This document shows, piece by piece, positions 9,460 through 41,717 of a stretch of DNA of 48,451 nucleotides. Origin of the DNA: a virus; the IMG/VR virus record IMGVR_UViG_3300006802_000145, positions 1 to 48,451 of that record; one strand, 5' to 3'. The notes under the pieces are model-generated. The model ran no database searches, had not been told where the DNA came from, and saw only the letters and a program-made list of their open reading frames with translations. Each line of letters begins with the position of its first letter. Position 1 is the first letter of the stretch. The translations under genes and the position numbers were made by a program.

Positions 9460-10130
9460 ATACACTTATATTATTAATAGACTTTGAGGGTGAAAAAGAA
9501 TTACAAGATCAGAATTACCTACACAAAAGATATCTTGCTTTAGCGAACATATTATCTAATAGATACATAGATAGAGAAAAATGTTTAGTTGTCTTTAATA
9601 CTTACAATAAACAGAAATCATGGATAAATCAATGGTCTAAACCACTTGATGAAAAATTAAGAGCATTAAGTAAATTTGCATGGATTAATAAATGGCAAGT
9701 ATTTGAAACATCAAAAGAAACTCAAACTGAAGATGGCTCAATAAAAGATATAGATATTGATTTTTTTATAGACACAATAAACAAAAAAGTATCAAATTTT
9801 CAATTTGATTCTAAAATTACAAAAGTAATAATAGGTGGTACAGAAACATCAGGTTGTTGTTTAGATAGTAAAAAACTAGGTGCCTTAAATTGGGTAAAAC
9901 GAGGTTACGATACAACAATATATTTACCTATGATGTGTGATTATTCAACTGAAGGTGATACTTGGTATGAAAAACAACAATGTGGTTTTGTTAGCTTCTG
10001 GAGAACAGTAATTAACTCTAATTTAAGACCTGATTATTATACAAAATTGAGTGTAGAATACAAATATCAATCAATTTTAAAGAAATTACCAATGGTAACA
10101 AAAGATAAAAAAGTTGATCCATTAGCTTGA
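9456..10130 (+). CDS. Isochorismatase-fold protein, paralogue B
   Basis: 224 residues, overlapping the preceding stop by 4 bases (ATGA). It repeats the plan of its neighbour: LILLIDF with Asp9, DREK after the first helices, and VIIGGTETSGCCLD with Cys134/Cys135, then GALNWVKRGYDTTIYLPMMCDY. It has an insertion of about 25 residues before the Cys motif and a longer C-terminus. The second Cys is unusual. The pair could form a heterodimer. The catalytic function is inferred only from fold and residue position. Confidence 0.65.
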   Translation: MNTLILLIDFEGEKELQDQNYLHKRYLALANILSNRYIDREKCLVVFNTYNKQKSWINQWSKPLDEKLRALSKFAWINKWQVFETSKETQTEDGSIKDIDIDFFIDTINKKVSNFQFDSKITKVIIGGTETSGCCLDSKKLGALNWVKRGYDTTIYLPMMCDYSTEGDTWYEKQQCGFVSFWRTVINSNLRPDYYTKLSVEYKYQSILKKLPMVTKDKKVDPLA

Positions 10131-10155
10131 CAATATTGACAAATTGTGATATAAT
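10127..10155 (+). promoter_or_regulatory. Sigma70-type promoter
   Basis: TTGACA (10127-10132), 17 bases, TATAAT (10150-10155), preceded by GTGA. The -35 overlaps the stop of the previous gene. It drives the nuclease gene at 10187, which has ribosome site GGAAAGG. Confidence 0.85.
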
Positions 10156-10186: not shown

Positions 10187-10888
10187 ATGTTTAAACATGT
10201 TAAATTGAATGAAGAAGTATTGCCTAAATCGTTAGGTGTGAAAGGCAAGAATCAAAACGGTGTAAGATATTATACTATTGATGGTGTTAATATGCCTTCC
10301 GTTACATCTATACTAGGACAAATACCCGAAAAACAAGCAGGTCTACAGGCATGGCGAAATGCAGTTGGTGAGAAAATGGCTAACTACATATCAACGTCTG
10401 CTGTCAATAGAGGTAAGACAACTCATACCTTGATTGAGAATCACTTGAACAACGAAGACGAGAAGTCGGTAGGTATAACTGCTGTTACACCACTAGGTCT
10501 TTTTAGAATTATTAAACCATATCTTGCTAGAATAGATAACATACATTGCCTAGAAGAATACCTATACTCAAAAGAAATAAGTGTTGCAGGTCAGGTAGAT
10601 TGTATTGCTGAGTATAGAGGTAAACTATCAGTTATTGATTTTAAGACCTCTACAAAGAAAAGGGATGCCAATTACAATTATGCTAACTTTTTACAATGTT
10701 CGGCATATGCAAAAATGTATGAAGAGCTATACCCAAATCACAAAATAGAACAAACTGTTATATTAGCCACATGTGAAGATGGTTTTGTACAAGAATGGAT
10801 ACATACCGAAGATAAAATCAAAGAACACCAAGAGTTATTTTATAAACACACTAAAGACTTTTTTAACAGAAATAATATAAATAGTTAA
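10187..10888 (+). CDS. PD-(D/E)XK nuclease (RecB/Cas4-like exonuclease)
   Basis: 233 residues. PSVTSILGQIPEK and RGKTTHTLIENHL (about 75-87) form the N-terminal helical part; EISVAGQVDCIAEYRGKLSVIDFKTS gives the catalytic core with Asp at about 138 and D151-K153 of the DFKTS motif; then NYANFLQCSAYAKMYEEL corresponds to the Q-x-x-x-Y motif. This is the RecB-like PD-(D/E)XK family, widespread in T4-type marine phages, where it is thought to act in host DNA degradation or recombination. It has its own strong sigma70-type promoter, so expression is probably early. Confidence 0.88.
   Translation: MFKHVKLNEEVLPKSLGVKGKNQNGVRYYTIDGVNMPSVTSILGQIPEKQAGLQAWRNAVGEKMANYISTSAVNRGKTTHTLIENHLNNEDEKSVGITAVTPLGLFRIIKPYLARIDNIHCLEEYLYSKEISVAGQVDCIAEYRGKLSVIDFKTSTKKRDANYNYANFLQCSAYAKMYEELYPNHKIEQTVILATCEDGFVQEWIHTEDKIKEHQELFYKHTKDFFNRNNINS
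10876..10883 (+). promoter_or_regulatory. T4-type late promoter
   Basis: A perfect TATAAATA within the last codons of the nuclease gene, about 82 bases before the secreted-protein gene at 10965; its transcript could also run through the tmRNA gene. Confidence 0.65.
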
Positions 10889-10964
10889 TAAAGAGTCAAT
10901 AGTTGAATTAATAAAAAAGGCGATTTATATATCCTACTTGCGACCATAACAGCTAAAGGGAAAT

Positions 10965-11300
10965 ATGAAAAAAATATTAATAGTTTTAAGTATATTATTT
11001 GCAACTGTAGTTTATGCCGAGCATGAAGAATTTAGTAATGAAGTTTATATGCAACAGGTACCTGCTTTATGTGGTACAGTAAATGCTATACAAACTTATG
11101 TTGATCATTATAAATTTAAACCATATCACTTAACACTAGGTAGAACAGGTATGGTAGAAGATGGTGAACCAGTTTATATGATAACTTATATGGTAAATGA
11201 AGATAATACACAATCAATTGCTGTATTAGATATACCAAGTGGACTTGAAAGATGTATTTTATTTCATACATTTGATTTAGTAGTGCCACAAAAGAATTAA
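10965..11300 (+). CDS. Secreted protein with signal peptide, unknown
   Basis: 111 residues. MKKILIVLSILFATVVYAEHEE is a clear Sec signal peptide with cleavage after VYA. The mature part has Cys in PALCGTVNAIQTYVDHY and in LERCILFHTF, and a central GEPVYMITYMVNEDNTQSIAVLDI beta pattern. It probably acts in the periplasm. A perfect late octamer lies upstream and the tmRNA gene begins right after the stop. The family is unknown. Confidence 0.7.
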   Translation: MKKILIVLSILFATVVYAEHEEFSNEVYMQQVPALCGTVNAIQTYVDHYKFKPYHLTLGRTGMVEDGEPVYMITYMVNEDNTQSIAVLDIPSGLERCILFHTFDLVVPQKN

Positions 11301-11304
11301 ACGT

Positions 11305-11524
11305 TGAAGGTAAGAGAATACCTGGAGAAGACGTGGCTGCAATGCCACCCACTCCACCATTTAAACAATGAAATTTAAGGGGTGGAACTAGGATCGATTC
11401 ACAGTTAAAACTTACTGGAGTTTAGTCGCTGACAACGTAAAGTCATCTTATAAATGCTAACAATTTAGCGATGGCAGCTTAATACTGCTAAACGGTTTGC
11501 CTGTACCGAGTAACAGAAACAGGC
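11305..11524 (+). ncRNA. ssrA: Circularly permuted two-piece tmRNA (alpha type)
   Basis: The acceptor piece comes first: T-stem GTGGC/GCCAC (11333-11337/11344-11348), acceptor strand CCACTCC (11349-11355) and encoded ACCA (11356-11359). After a 19-base AT-rich spacer the coding piece starts with GGGGTGG (11379-11385), which pairs fully with the acceptor strand and puts a G-U at the third pair, the alanine identity element. AACTAGGATCGATTC resembles the tmRNA D region. A hairpin (TTAC/GTAA with GTC/GAC) is followed by 13 unpaired bases and the tag frame GCT 11456 to TAA 11480, encoding ANNLAMAA. The stop lies in the H5 loop (TTTAGC 11464 / GCTAAA 11487). Then a pseudoknot: CGGT/ACCG interleaved with GCCTGT/ACAGGC (11493-11524). 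The 5' end is uncertain. Confidence 0.9.
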
Positions 11525-11552
11525 TTGACAAACACGTAGATTGTGATATAAT
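11525..11552 (+). promoter_or_regulatory. Sigma70-type promoter
   Basis: TTGACA (11525-11530), 16 bases, TATAAT (11547-11552), directly after the last tmRNA helix. It drives the block starting at 11576 (gp33, gp59 and following genes), whose first gene has ribosome site GTGAGGT. Confidence 0.8.
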
Positions 11553-11575
11553 ATTATTATAAAGTGAGGTAAATT

Positions 11576-11779
11576 ATGAGTGAAAATATAGAAAGAGATT
11601 CCCGTGAGCATGATATGACTTATGAGAATGAACAATCAACGGTAACAATACCGTTAAAAGAATATGATAGACTAAAAGCAGAACAAACTTATATCACAGA
11701 CCCAAGTTTAATTAGTATCATAGATAAAATAGAAGAACTAACAAGAGCATTAAGAAAACACATAGTAAGAAAATTCTGA
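11576..11779 (+). CDS. Small coiled-coil-like protein (67 aa)
   Basis: 67 residues, polar N-terminus, then STVTIPLKEYDRLKAE and a helix SIIDKIEELTRALRKHIVRKF. The VxIxxxEYxxL pattern is often seen in small phage proteins that form coiled coils. It is the first gene behind a strong promoter and is joined to gp33 (stop TGA overlaps ATG). The function is unknown. Confidence 0.6.
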   Translation: MSENIERDSREHDMTYENEQSTVTIPLKEYDRLKAEQTYITDPSLISIIDKIEELTRALRKHIVRKF

Positions 11780-12000
11780 TGTTAATGAATAGTAAAAAGT
11801 TTGCTCAAATAATAGAGGCAATAGTAAAAGAGAAACGGATGTCCTATATGGATGCCGTGTTAAAATATTGTGAAGAAAATGATATTGACACAGCGTCTGT
11901 AGGTCCTTTAATCAACAAGTCACTAAAAGAAAAGATAAAAGAAGAGGCAGAAAAGCTAAACTTGGTTGAACGATCAAGCACAGCAATCTTACCTATATGA
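11779..12000 (+). CDS. 33: gp33-like late transcription co-activator
   Basis: 73 residues. KKFAQIIEAIVKEKRMSYMDAVLKYCEENDIDTASVGPLINKSLKEKIKEEAEKLNLVE matches the marine T4-type gp33 plan: helix, the SYxDAVxxYCEExxI segment, then an (I)xKxLKEKIxxEAxxLN helix and a short ILPI end. In T4, gp33 links the sliding clamp to RNA polymerase carrying gp55, so that late promoters fire. Late octamers are abundant in this window, so its presence is coherent. It precedes gp59, as in T4 (33-59-32), and overlaps it by 4 bases. Confidence 0.82.
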   Translation: MLMNSKKFAQIIEAIVKEKRMSYMDAVLKYCEENDIDTASVGPLINKSLKEKIKEEAEKLNLVERSSTAILPI

Positions 12001-12599
12001 ACAGTTATGAGGCTTATACATTATATTTGGCTATTAAACTACACTTCACTTCCGATAGTTATGATTTTTACAGGCACAATGCCAAAGTTAATTCAACATT
12101 TAACACATTTTTAAAACGTAATGATAGGTTCTTTTTTCATAAACTTACAACTAAATATACAAAGGAAGAAATGCTAGACTATTTTGTATCTAATTTCTTT
12201 CATAATTCAAAAACATGGATAGGTAATCTAGTTAGAGCAGATGGAGAAACAACTTATAACAAGTGGAAAAAATATAATCAATCTTTTACGTACAATTTTA
12301 GAGGGGATTGTGTATTACTTTCTAATGTCATTAATGATAATAGGATTCGGTTTGATGATTTGTTTCGTGTACATAGTGGGCAACATCCACGATTGCTACG
12401 ATTACTTCTATCTGAAAAAATATCAGTACAGACAATCATCATCTTGGATAAAGTTTTATCATTTGTTAAAAGATGGGACAAAGAGATTGCTGAAACAGTT
12501 ATCTGGCCTGAAAAATCGTTTAAAATAAAGAAATTATCACCTTTTATTAAGTTTAACCTTACTAAGTGTAAGTTTATAATGAAAGAGGTGTTTGTGTGA
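11997..12599 (+). CDS. 59: gp59 helicase loader
   Basis: 200 residues. SYEAYTLYLAIKLHFTSDSYDFYRHNAKV followed by FLKRNDRFFFHKLTTKYTKEEMLDYFVSNFF is the typical N-terminal domain; WIGNLVRADGETTYNKWKKYNQSFTYNF and the HSGQHPRLLRLLLSEKISVQTIIILD segment complete the T4 gp59 plan. gp59 loads the gp41 helicase at forks and recombination intermediates and binds gp32. The gene lies between gp33 and gp32, as in T4. Confidence 0.9.
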   Translation: MNSYEAYTLYLAIKLHFTSDSYDFYRHNAKVNSTFNTFLKRNDRFFFHKLTTKYTKEEMLDYFVSNFFHNSKTWIGNLVRADGETTYNKWKKYNQSFTYNFRGDCVLLSNVINDNRIRFDDLFRVHSGQHPRLLRLLLSEKISVQTIIILDKVLSFVKRWDKEIAETVIWPEKSFKIKKLSPFIKFNLTKCKFIMKEVFV

Positions 12600-14170: not shown

Positions 14171-15070
14171 ATGTCAAGTGCATTAGAAGCCCTAAAAAAG
14201 TCAAAGTCAAATTTTGACGTACTAACGAAGAAGTTAGAAAACACAATAGAACAACCCGAAAAGAAAAACAAGTACCAAGACGACAGGTTATGGAAACCTG
14301 AACTAGATAAGTCTGGCAATGGTTACGCAGTATTGAGATTCTTACCTGCTGTAGAAGGCGAAGATATGCCTTGGCAGAGAGTCTGGAACCATGCGTTTCA
14401 AGGACCAGGTGGTCAATGGTATATTGAAAACTCATTAACAACTTTAAACAAAAAAGATCCTGTTAGTGAAGAAAACACTAGACTATGGAATACTGGCATA
14501 GAAGCCGATAAAGAAATTGCTAGAAAAAGAAAAAGAAAGTTATCTTACTATTCAAATATTCTAGTAGTATCTGATCCAAAACATCCTGAAAACGAAGGTA
14601 AAGTTTTCTTATTCAAATTTGGTAAAAAGATATTTGATAAGATTACAGAAGCAATGAACCCAGCGTTTGAAGATGAAAAGGCTGTTAACCCATTTGATTT
14701 TTGGGAAGGTGCAAACTTTAAACTAAAAATCAGAAAAGTTGATGGTTATTGGAATTATGACAAATCTGAATTTGAGCAACCAAGTAGAGTAAAACCTACT
14801 GATGAGGAGATTGACAAAATATGGAAATCTCAACATGCTCTAAAGCCCTTCATTGACCCTAGTAATTTTAAATCTTATGATGAACTCAAAGAGAAACTGA
14901 ATAAGACACTTACTGGACAAAGAAGTACCGAGTCAGTTGAAGATATTGACCTCCCACCTGTCAGCAATGACATACCAACGTCTTCTAACAATTCGGTAGA
15001 GAAAGTTGAATCGTCTAACGACAGCGATGACCTGTCGTATTTTAGTAAACTAGCTGAAGACGATTCATAA
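14171..15070 (+). CDS. 32: gp32 single-stranded DNA-binding protein
   Basis: 299 residues. The N-terminal cooperativity part (about 1-35) precedes an OB core: NGYAVLRFLPAVEGEDMPWQRVWNHAF, NTGIEADKEIARKRKRKLSYYSNILVVSDP, NEGKVFLFKFGKKIFDKI, and WEGANFKLKIRKVDGYWNYDKSEF. The C-terminal about 60 residues are acidic (DSDDLSYFSKLAEDDS), the usual partner-binding tail. The protein contains no Cys, so the structural zinc site of T4 gp32 is missing, as I recall for marine T4-type relatives. gp32 coats single-stranded DNA in replication and recombination. It has tandem early and late promoters and a downstream terminator-like hairpin. Confidence 0.95.
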   Translation: MSSALEALKKSKSNFDVLTKKLENTIEQPEKKNKYQDDRLWKPELDKSGNGYAVLRFLPAVEGEDMPWQRVWNHAFQGPGGQWYIENSLTTLNKKDPVSEENTRLWNTGIEADKEIARKRKRKLSYYSNILVVSDPKHPENEGKVFLFKFGKKIFDKITEAMNPAFEDEKAVNPFDFWEGANFKLKIRKVDGYWNYDKSEFEQPSRVKPTDEEIDKIWKSQHALKPFIDPSNFKSYDELKEKLNKTLTGQRSTESVEDIDLPPVSNDIPTSSNNSVEKVESSNDSDDLSYFSKLAEDDS

Positions 15071-39143: not shown

Positions 39144-41717
39144 ATGGCCGACTTTAAAGATAAAATATCAAACCTTATAAATTCACAAGTACCTGATTTT
39201 GTACTTGAAGACCACCCATTATTTTTAGACTTTGTAAAAGCATATTATCAGTTGATGGAATCAGCTGAGATTACATTAACAAACATTGGCGATCCAGATC
39301 ATTTAGTATTAGAAGGTACAACAGCTGCAAAGATTGTACTTGATGGTACAAACGTAAGTAAAGATGATGGTGACGATAACGTTCTTTTAGAAGACACAAG
39401 TTATGGTGATTTTATAAACGGCGAAACTATTACAGGTTCTACATCTGGTGCAACGACAACAGTAATAATAGAAGACGTTGATGGTGGTGGTCGTTTGTTT
39501 GTTACTCATCAAAATAAATTTATAGAAGGTGAATTAATAACAGGTTCGTCTTCAGGTGCTCAGGCAACTATAGGTAAGTACAGAGCAAACCCAGTTCAAA
39601 ATATTCAACAACTTTTAGATTACGCTGATGTAGATAAAACTATATCAGGTTTCTTATCTAAATTTAGAAACTCATTTTTAACAAGTGTACCTGATAGATT
39701 ATACGAAGGTATAGATAAAAGAAATCTTACAAAAAATATTAAATCACTATATCAATCTAAAGGTACAAAACGTGCAAGTGAAATATTTTTTAAATTACTT
39801 TTAAACGAAGACGCTGAAATAAGATACCCTAAAGATGAAATATTAAGGGTGTCTGATGGTAAATGGGATACTAAAAAAATAATTCGTTGTTTAGCATTAG
39901 GTAATTCAGAGCCTACAAATCTTATAGGTCAAACAATCACACAAGCAAACAACCCGACAGATACAAATATAAATGAAGCGACTGCAATTGTAGAAGATGT
40001 ATTTAAATTTTTAATAGGTGGTGTAGAAGTTACTGAATTAGTTGTAGGTGATAATTCTGTTTCTGGTACTTTTGTTGCTGGTGAAACAATTACAGGTACA
40101 GATAATACAGACGCTGATGTTTTAGTTTCATTAACAGTTTCAAAAATTATAGATCAAAAAACAATTACAAATGATGGTGCATTATATAACGAAGATGACC
40201 AAGTAGAAATAACAGCAGGTGGTACAGGTGCAAATGTTAAAGTTGGTACAATAGGTCCTGGTACAATACAAGAAGTATTAGTAGATACAGGTGGTACAGG
40301 TTACGCTGTAGGTGATACCATAAACTTTGGCACAGGAAATGCGACTGCAAGAGTATCAGTTGTAAATGGTGGTGTTACATTAGAGTCTGGTACAGGTCAA
40401 TTAATATTAGAAGATGAAACAGGTAAGAATGACCAATATTTTGGTAACAAAGTTGTACAAGAAGCAGGTTCAGGTAACGAAGATATTACAGATGTTAGAA
40501 TGATTGAGTTTGGTAATGGTTATACATCTTTACCTAGTGTGACGGTTACGTCATCTGGTGGTAGTGGTGCAAAACTATTAGCATATGGTTCTGAAATAGG
40601 ACGTGCATTAACAATGAAAGTAATTGAGTCTGGTTATAATTATCAAGCAAGTCCTGCACCAACAATAAAGTTACCAACTTATATTTTATACAATGGTCTT
40701 TCAGGTGGTTTAAGTGAAGGAGAAACAATAACTGGTGGTACTAGTAGTGTTACTGCTGAGATAGTTTCTATAGATACGGATTTGAATATTGTAAAAGCAA
40801 AAAATCATAGTGGATCATTTGTAGAGGGAGAAACAATTACTGGTGGTAATGGCGCTACATTTACTGCATTAAGATTACAACAAGCAACTGGTACAGTTTC
40901 AACAGGTACAGTTGTAACTACAGATGGTACTTTTATAAACGAAGATGGTTGGGTATCTGAAAACTCAATGAAAATACAAGACAGTTTATTATACCAAGAT
41001 TATTCATATATCATAAAAGTTGGTAGATCAATTAATGAATGGCGTGACGCATATGTAAAAACTTTACACTCTGCTGGTTTTTATTTTCAAGGTGAGATTG
41101 CCATACAGTCAAGTTTAAATGCTCAGATTAGAAGAATAACTGGAGTAAACTCTGGTGTAGAAGGTATCTTAAAAACTCTACTTACAAGAATTTACTCAAA
41201 ACTTATTGGTCGTAGATTGGGTACAGAAACAGATGGTACAAGTTTAAGAGCAAATGCAAAAGCGGCTGTTGCAGCTGATTTTGATACAGATACTATAACA
41301 CAATTTGATAAAACAACAAGAGATGTAACTTTAAAAACACAACCACTTGTAATAGATTATGTAAGTAGAGTTAGACGTACTATAAACAATGTCAATGTAA
41401 GACAAGGATTTGTATATGCAGGACCTAGATTTGGCACAATAAACAAAATGATACAAACTGCATTTGGTCTTACAGCAAACGGAACGCCTAGTAGTAGTGG
41501 TATTACATTTGAACAATTAAGTGCTATTAAAGTAAAAGGTACAAGAACATCACTAGATGGTTCTAACGCAATATTTTTAATGACATCTTCAGAGGATGGT
41601 AGAAAAATCAAAACAAATTTCACAATTCCTGCACAAATAGGTGTTTTACAAGGTGATACTTTTGATGAAACACAAACCACATTTGATAATACTAATATTA
41701 CAATGGATGCAGGTTAA
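39144..41717 (+). CDS. Large baseplate/virion protein of marine T4-type phages (gp7 position)
   Basis: 857 residues. NSQVPDFVLEDHPLFLDFVKAYYQLME is a conserved start seen in large marine T4-type structural proteins, followed further on by FLSKFRNSFLTSVPDRLYEGIDKRNLTKNIKSLYQSKGTKRASEIFFKLLLNEDAEIRYPKDEI. The middle has repeats of the type FxxGETITGxTSGA (about residues 90, 128, 312, 530, 560) and Gly-rich TGGTGYAVGD segments. The position right after gp6 is where T4 has gp7; sequence identity with T4 gp7 is not claimed. Coupled tightly to gp6. Confidence 0.8.
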   Translation: MADFKDKISNLINSQVPDFVLEDHPLFLDFVKAYYQLMESAEITLTNIGDPDHLVLEGTTAAKIVLDGTNVSKDDGDDNVLLEDTSYGDFINGETITGSTSGATTTVIIEDVDGGGRLFVTHQNKFIEGELITGSSSGAQATIGKYRANPVQNIQQLLDYADVDKTISGFLSKFRNSFLTSVPDRLYEGIDKRNLTKNIKSLYQSKGTKRASEIFFKLLLNEDAEIRYPKDEILRVSDGKWDTKKIIRCLALGNSEPTNLIGQTITQANNPTDTNINEATAIVEDVFKFLIGGVEVTELVVGDNSVSGTFVAGETITGTDNTDADVLVSLTVSKIIDQKTITNDGALYNEDDQVEITAGGTGANVKVGTIGPGTIQEVLVDTGGTGYAVGDTINFGTGNATARVSVVNGGVTLESGTGQLILEDETGKNDQYFGNKVVQEAGSGNEDITDVRMIEFGNGYTSLPSVTVTSSGGSGAKLLAYGSEIGRALTMKVIESGYNYQASPAPTIKLPTYILYNGLSGGLSEGETITGGTSSVTAEIVSIDTDLNIVKAKNHSGSFVEGETITGGNGATFTALRLQQATGTVSTGTVVTTDGTFINEDGWVSENSMKIQDSLLYQDYSYIIKVGRSINEWRDAYVKTLHSAGFYFQGEIAIQSSLNAQIRRITGVNSGVEGILKTLLTRIYSKLIGRRLGTETDGTSLRANAKAAVAADFDTDTITQFDKTTRDVTLKTQPLVIDYVSRVRRTINNVNVRQGFVYAGPRFGTINKMIQTAFGLTANGTPSSSGITFEQLSAIKVKGTRTSLDGSNAIFLMTSSEDGRKIKTNFTIPAQIGVLQGDTFDETQTTFDNTNITMDAG

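What the first reader, a model, noticed from the sequence alone, without database searches (positions are those of the whole stretch)
11305..11524. Phage-borne permuted two-piece tmRNA
All diagnostic parts are present in alphaproteobacterial order: acceptor piece with CCACTCC-ACCA, then GGGGTGG with a G3-U pair for alanylation, a hairpin, a tag frame ending in AMAA with the stop in the H5 loop, and a perfect pseudoknot. Phage tmRNAs are known but uncommon; a two-piece permuted form in a T4-type phage is unusual and points to the host group. It could rescue ribosomes or change the degradation tag during infection.
Basis: seen in the sequence. Interest (0 to 1): 0.85.

Follow-up and report, generated by a model that had tools for sequence, protein, structure and literature searches.

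The report
Two-piece tmRNA gene in marine phage
The stretch is a real, structurally constrained gene for a split ribosome-rescue RNA (two-piece tmRNA) carried by a T4-like phage whose closest cultured relatives infect SAR11 bacteria; such phage genes were already known, so this is a new member of a known kind, with an unusually short loop that makes a standard gene finder miss it.

Summary
Across 41 distinct phage homologues, 28 of 46 base pairs change on both sides while still pairing, and the G3-U70 alanylation pair never varies, so the gene is under structural selection. Of 103 related viral loci that span the slot, 64 carry it, between an exonuclease gene and T4-type gp33. The closest named relatives are Pelagibacter phages; no SmpB gene was found in five phage records. 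SAR11 tmRNAs share the architecture and similar tags.

It is not new in kind: two-piece tmRNAs of Pelagibacter phage Mosig and methylophage Melnitz are annotated and published (PMC9004378). New here: this clade has a 6-nt T-loop, all 19 loci of that type are missed by ARAGORN, and the tag is ANNLAMAA, with an M third from the end that was not seen in 34 SAR11 tags. Most likely function: two-piece trans-translation using host SmpB and AlaRS (inferred, not shown). Solid but ordinary; interest about 0.3.

The parts
11298..11359 (+). Acceptor (tRNA-like 3') piece of the permuted tmRNA, ending in encoded CCA; its first bases overlap the UAA stop (11298-11300) of ORF 10965-11300
   Evidence: RF04321/RF01849 hits; H2 strand UAAAC 11298-302 pairs with GUUUA 11420-24, 100% of cells paired in 41 sequences
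11333..11348 (+). T arm GUGGC-UGCAAU-GCCAC with a 6-nt loop
   Evidence: sequence; the 4 outer stem pairs covary in 41 sequences; same 6-nt type in 19 loci
11349..11359 (+). Acceptor-stem 3' strand CCACUCC + discriminator A + CCA
   Evidence: pairs with 11379-11385, G3-U70 in 41/41
11360..11378 (+). Intervening sequence (19 nt), expected to be cut out of the precursor
   Evidence: sequence; length varies between homologues; processing itself not shown
11379..11524 (+). Coding (mRNA-like) piece, from mature 5' GGGG to the end of PK2
   Evidence: RF01849 to 11527
11379..11385 (+). Acceptor-stem 5' strand GGGGUGG with G3
11398..11424 (+). H2 return strands (UUCACAG, CUUAC, GUUUA), pairing with 11322-29, 11310-14 and 11298-302
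   Evidence: covariation, helices 1-3
11427..11445 (+). PK1: CG 427-28/CG 436-37 and UGAC 430-33/GUCA 442-45
   Evidence: covariation CG to GC and CG to UA (helices 6, 7)
11456..11482 (+). Tag reading frame, ANNLAMAA*, resume codon GCU
   Evidence: ARAGORN reads the same tag in relatives with a 7-nt T-loop
11474..11488 (+). H5 hairpin GCAG-CUUAAUA-CUGC, stop codon in loop
   Evidence: covariation, helix 8
11493..11524 (+). PK2 H-type pseudoknot CGGU/ACCG + GCCUGU/ACAGGC
   Evidence: covariation, helices 9, 10
10127..10155 (+). Perfect sigma70-consensus promoter-like site (TTGACA-17-TATAAT) upstream of the exonuclease gene; possible promoter for exonuclease-ORF111-tmRNA
   Evidence: consensus match only
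11525..11552 (+). Perfect TTGACA-16-TATAAT directly abutting PK2; probable promoter of ORF67-gp33
   Evidence: the same promoter-like sequence precedes ORF67 in relatives without tmRNA

Best explanation
An ssrA gene of the permuted alphaproteobacterial type in the replication/transcription-regulator region of a T4-like (Kyanoviridae-related) pelagiphage. The precursor is probably transcribed with the upstream exonuclease and ORF111, cut by host tRNA-processing enzymes after 11359 and before 11379 into an acceptor piece and a coding piece, and held together by the acceptor stem and H2. Host AlaRS would charge it through G3-U70 and host SmpB would bring it to stalled ribosomes, which resume at GCU and add AANNLAMAA, a degradation tag for host ClpXP-type proteases. 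Shown: the anatomy, the structural selection, the synteny, no phage SmpB in the records searched. Inferred: transcription, processing, charging, rescue and tagging.
For: Rfam hits above cut-off. 41 distinct homologues: 95.7% of cells paired, 28/46 pairs with double changes, covariation score 0.391 against at most 0.055 when slid and 0/500 shuffles. G3-U70, neighbouring C-G pairs and CCA invariant. Tag frame open in homologues, ending AA. Conserved synteny exonuclease-ORF-tmRNA-(ORF67)-gp33-gp59. Same RNA class in HTVC008M, Mosig and Melnitz. SAR11 genomes carry the same permuted type with tags such as ANESYALAA, identical to the tag of several relatives. No SmpB in five phage records while the control rings in 10 of 14 genomes.
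Against: No expression or processing data. The 6-nt T-loop is absent from 34 SAR11 tmRNAs and its effect on charging or SmpB binding is unknown. 24 loci with an exonuclease at least 94% identical do without a detectable copy, so the gene is dispensable. G000 itself is a 48-kb fragment, so absence of SmpB rests on the other four records.
Confidence: 0.88

Rival explanations
1. The RNA is made and charged but works mainly as a competitor or decoy: it takes SmpB and ribosome A sites from host tmRNA and puts on a tag that host proteases handle differently, so that tagged proteins are spared or sent elsewhere.
For: The tag of this clade (ANNLAMAA) and of other phages (DNHIDYRMAA, DNESYRMAA) departs from all 34 SAR11 tags in the last four residues. 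A tagless phage tmRNA (DS6A) inhibits endogenous tmRNA in E. coli according to PMC11915505.
Against: The C-terminal AA is kept and M for L is conservative; many relatives keep exactly the host tag ANESYALAA, which argues for ordinary tagging.
Confidence: 0.08
2. A captured host ssrA copy that is passively carried or decaying.
For: Presence is patchy: 39 of 103 loci spanning the slot lack a detectable copy, and L216 keeps what looks like only the PK2 tail.
Against: Extensive compensatory change, open tag frames and invariant functional bases are not expected of a relic; the phage sequences are far diverged from SAR11 ones in the tree, so this is not a recent capture.
Confidence: 0.04

Closest known systems
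SsrA of Pelagibacter phage Mosig EXVC030M (MT647606) and the unannotated tmRNA of HTVC008M (KC465899)
   Same: permuted two-piece type, in the exonuclease-gp33 interval, same acceptor and PK2 anatomy
   Different: 7-nt T-loop, longer intervening sequence, tags GEDNFALAA and ANFNEYALAA; little DNA similarity (51 nt at 82% to HTVC008M)
Two-piece tmRNA of Methylophilales phage Melnitz (PMC9004378)
   Same: permuted alphaproteobacterial type in a T4-like phage, upstream of the late-transcription coactivator
   Different: intervening sequence of about 142 nt, tag ANDNYVPVDYALAA, followed by a glutamine riboswitch (RF01739) which the window lacks
Chromosomal ssrA of SAR11 (Pelagibacteraceae)
   Same: gene order, acceptor stem with G3-U70, resume context AAAUGC, tag frame of 9 codons ending AA
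   Different: 7-nt T-loop in 34/34 (GGCAGUA or GGCGGUA), tags mostly ANDKFALAA or ANESYALAA; 61 of 62 phage rows group apart from SAR11 in a 294-column tree of modest support

Membership tests
Permuted (two-piece) tmRNA, alphaproteobacterial type | covariance-model score above curated cut-off | tested here: met
   RF04321 75.6 > 47; RF01849 64.3 > 50
Permuted (two-piece) tmRNA, alphaproteobacterial type | acceptor 3' strand with CCA precedes the 5' strand, separated by an intervening sequence | tested here: met
   11349-11359, 11360-11378, 11379-11385; pairs covary
Permuted (two-piece) tmRNA, alphaproteobacterial type | G3-U70 identity pair for AlaRS | tested here: met
   41 of 41
Permuted (two-piece) tmRNA, alphaproteobacterial type | tag frame ending in Ala-Ala with stop in H5 | tested here: met
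   ANNLAMAA, UAA 11480-82 in H5 loop
Permuted (two-piece) tmRNA, alphaproteobacterial type | 7-nt T-loop (usual trait, not treated here as defining) | tested here: not met
   6-nt loop UGCAAU; the stem covaries and the same type recurs in 19 loci. A T arm of the same shortened length occurs in L265, L251 and L248, which ARAGORN still calls tmRNA
Permuted (two-piece) tmRNA, alphaproteobacterial type | cleavage into two RNAs | not testable with these tools
   needs RNA from infected cells
Permuted (two-piece) tmRNA, alphaproteobacterial type | alanylation, SmpB binding, tagging of nascent proteins | not testable with these tools
   needs biochemistry; no SmpB in the phage records

The most novel reading that the evidence does not exclude
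This phage clade carries a tmRNA with a shortened T-loop and a non-host tag that has been adapted to phage needs, for example by changing how tagged proteins are degraded during infection or by competing with the host tmRNA.
Probability: 0.12. Interest if true: 0.6.

Novelty: new member of a known kind. Interest (0 to 1): 0.3.

Why it matters
It adds a well-supported clade to the phage two-piece tmRNAs and shows, by covariation, that they are selected as functional RNAs rather than carried host debris. It also shows that surveys based on ARAGORN, such as the published phage count, can miss whole clades: 19 of 19 loci of the window's T-loop type went undetected although Rfam finds the window's gene easily. 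The presence or absence of the tmRNA at one slot in closely related phages makes its role in infection testable.

Tried and rejected
Sequencing error as the reason for the 6-nt T-loop: rejected, since 19 loci on many contigs share it. Chance match: rejected. Glutamine riboswitch next to the tmRNA as in Melnitz: none in 10900-12000 even at E 1. Plasmid homologue: none. A first DNA pattern (CTCCACCA..GGGG) on viral contigs gave mostly unrelated matches; protein-anchored searches were used instead. A weak second R1 hit at 41152-41317 (19.9 bits, rough calibration, inside an 857-aa ORF) was taken as chance. A DNA query of 400 bases from SAR11 locus L403 found nothing in phages, but those bases may not include the tmRNA, so no weight is put on it.

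Full report
What is there. Rfam's permuted-tmRNA model (RF04321) and alphaproteobacterial tmRNA model (RF01849) hit 11298-11482 and 11241-11527 on the + strand at 75.6 and 64.3 bits, above cut-offs of 47 and 50. Nothing else in the window reaches a gathering score. ARAGORN reports no tmRNA and no tRNA. Single-strand folding of 11301-11530 is 3.6 standard deviations more stable than shuffles.

Anatomy, checked on the letters. Acceptor piece: H2 strands UAAAC 11298-302, GUAAG 11310-314 and CUGGAGAA 11322-329, T arm 11333-348, acceptor strand CCACUCC 11349-355, A73 and encoded CCA 11356-359. Intervening sequence 11360-378. Coding piece: GGGGUGG 11379-385, H2 return strands UUCACAG 11398-404, CUUAC 11411-415 and GUUUA 11420-424, PK1 11427-445, tag GCU AAC AAU UUA GCG AUG GCA GCU UAA 11456-482, H5 GCAG/CUGC with the stop in its loop, PK2 CGGU/ACCG and GCCUGU/ACAGGC ending at 11524. 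The upstream ORF's stop codon (11298-300) is part of H2, and a perfect TTGACA-16-TATAAT starts at 11525, the base after PK2. So the gene is wedged between a coding sequence and the next promoter-like site.

Selection. Relatives were collected through the neighbouring exonuclease and gp32 proteins and found with an HMM of the RNA. On 41 distinct sequences the ten helices named from the window give 95.7% paired cells, 28 of 46 pairs with changes on both sides, and a covariation score of 0.391; slid partners give at most 0.055 and none of 500 shuffles reaches it. Caveat: related sequences exceed shuffles more easily, and the structure was derived partly from one of the sequences; the slide control and the number of doubly changed pairs remain strong. 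The G3-U70 pair and two neighbouring C-G pairs never vary.

Context. PHROGs names the neighbours exonuclease (10187-10888), late-promoter regulator gp33 (11779-12000), helicase loader gp59 (11997-12599) and gp32 (14171-15070), a T4-type region. The nearest annotated phages are Pelagibacter phages Mosig and HTVC008M. A 165-kb IMG/VR contig has the same tmRNA with 100% identity. Of 103 loci spanning exonuclease to gp33/gp59, 64 carry a detectable tmRNA and 39 do not; many contigs are near-copies, so these are not independent counts. In several tmRNA-less relatives with exonuclease 94-97% identical, the upstream ORF (itself a diverged version) is followed directly by the same TTGACA...TATAAT and ORF67. 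One relative (L216) keeps a piece that matches only the PK2 tail, suggesting loss.

Host. Sixty-two of 79 sampled SAR11 genomes hit RF04321 (stricter filters, incomplete genomes). The 34 fetched have 7-nt T-loops and tags ANDKFALAA (14), ANESYALAA (9), ANESYAIAA (4), ANNKFALAA (3), ANEQFALAA (3), ANTKFALAA (1). Several phage relatives carry exactly ANESYALAA; the window's clade carries ANNLAMAA, others ANNNFAMAA or DNHIDYRMAA. In a tree of 294 columns 61 of 62 phage rows lie apart from SAR11, the exception being a very long branch; support is rough. This fits an old acquisition from an alphaproteobacterium with evolution inside phages, but does not prove one origin. That SAR11 is the host of this phage is an inference from relatives.

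The odd feature. The window's T-loop has 6 nt (UGCAAU). The same type occurs in 19 loci and ARAGORN misses all 19; it finds 54 of the 84 phage copies tested, some of which are cut by contig ends. A few loci with 7-nt loops are also missed (for example L190/L191), and three loci with another shortened T arm are found, so the loop is the probable but not the proven reason.

Mechanism. Most likely ordinary two-piece trans-translation with host factors: no SmpB (PF01668) was found in the window, in the 165-kb relative, or in Mosig, Melnitz and HTVC008M. Transcription, processing, charging and tagging are inferred from the family (Keiler et al. 2000 and Sharkady and Williams 2004, as cited in PMC9004378).

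Known or new. PMC9004378 describes the two-piece tmRNA of Melnitz, finds permuted tmRNA in 17 of 47 related contigs, and counts 53 two-piece forms among 133 phage tmRNAs using ARAGORN; it already proposes SAR11 ancestry and possible roles. Mosig's copy is annotated SsrA. PMC11915505 lists 79 unique bacteriophage tmRNAs and introduces RF04321. The finding is therefore a new member of a known kind.

Noticed in passing
window 10919-10963: Conserved 5'UTR motif GGCGATTTA..CCTACTTGCGACC..ACAGCTAAAGGG just before the ATG of ORF 10965-11300, resembling the SAM-II riboswitch core; in other viral loci the putative P1 strands change together (ACGCG/CGCGT L477, GTGC/GCAC L503, CGTG/CACG L533). Rfam RF00521 scores it only sub-threshold in one relative (23.1 bits) and not in the window, so it is a candidate only.
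   Followed up: partly
window 11525-11779; L133, L147, L138, L140, L215: ORF67 with its promoter-like site is found in 30 of 39 tmRNA-less loci but in only 13 of 64 tmRNA-bearing ones, as if the two were alternative modules of one slot (the window has both); near-copies inflate the counts.
   Followed up: partly
L158, L200, L281, L087: Phage tmRNA tags that start with D or G instead of A, two of them ending in RMAA (DNHIDYRMAA, DNESYRMAA, GEDNFALAA, GNNNFALAA).
   Followed up: no
alignment A1, e.g. L181, L233, L187, L197: Acceptor-arm type, tag type and PK2 type combine differently in different phages (for example the 6-nt T arm with tag ANESYALAA in L233; PK2 GATAG/CTATC in L187 and L197), suggesting recombination inside the tmRNA gene.
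   Followed up: no
L281 6231-6438; L282 4616-4664: manA RNA (RF01745) upstream of a rubrerythrin gene in Pelagibacter phage Mosig, and a glutamine riboswitch (RF01739) right after the tmRNA in Melnitz.
   Followed up: no
L002 5800-6053 (KC465899.1, about 145161-145414): The tmRNA of Pelagibacter phage HTVC008M is not annotated in its GenBank record.
   Followed up: yes
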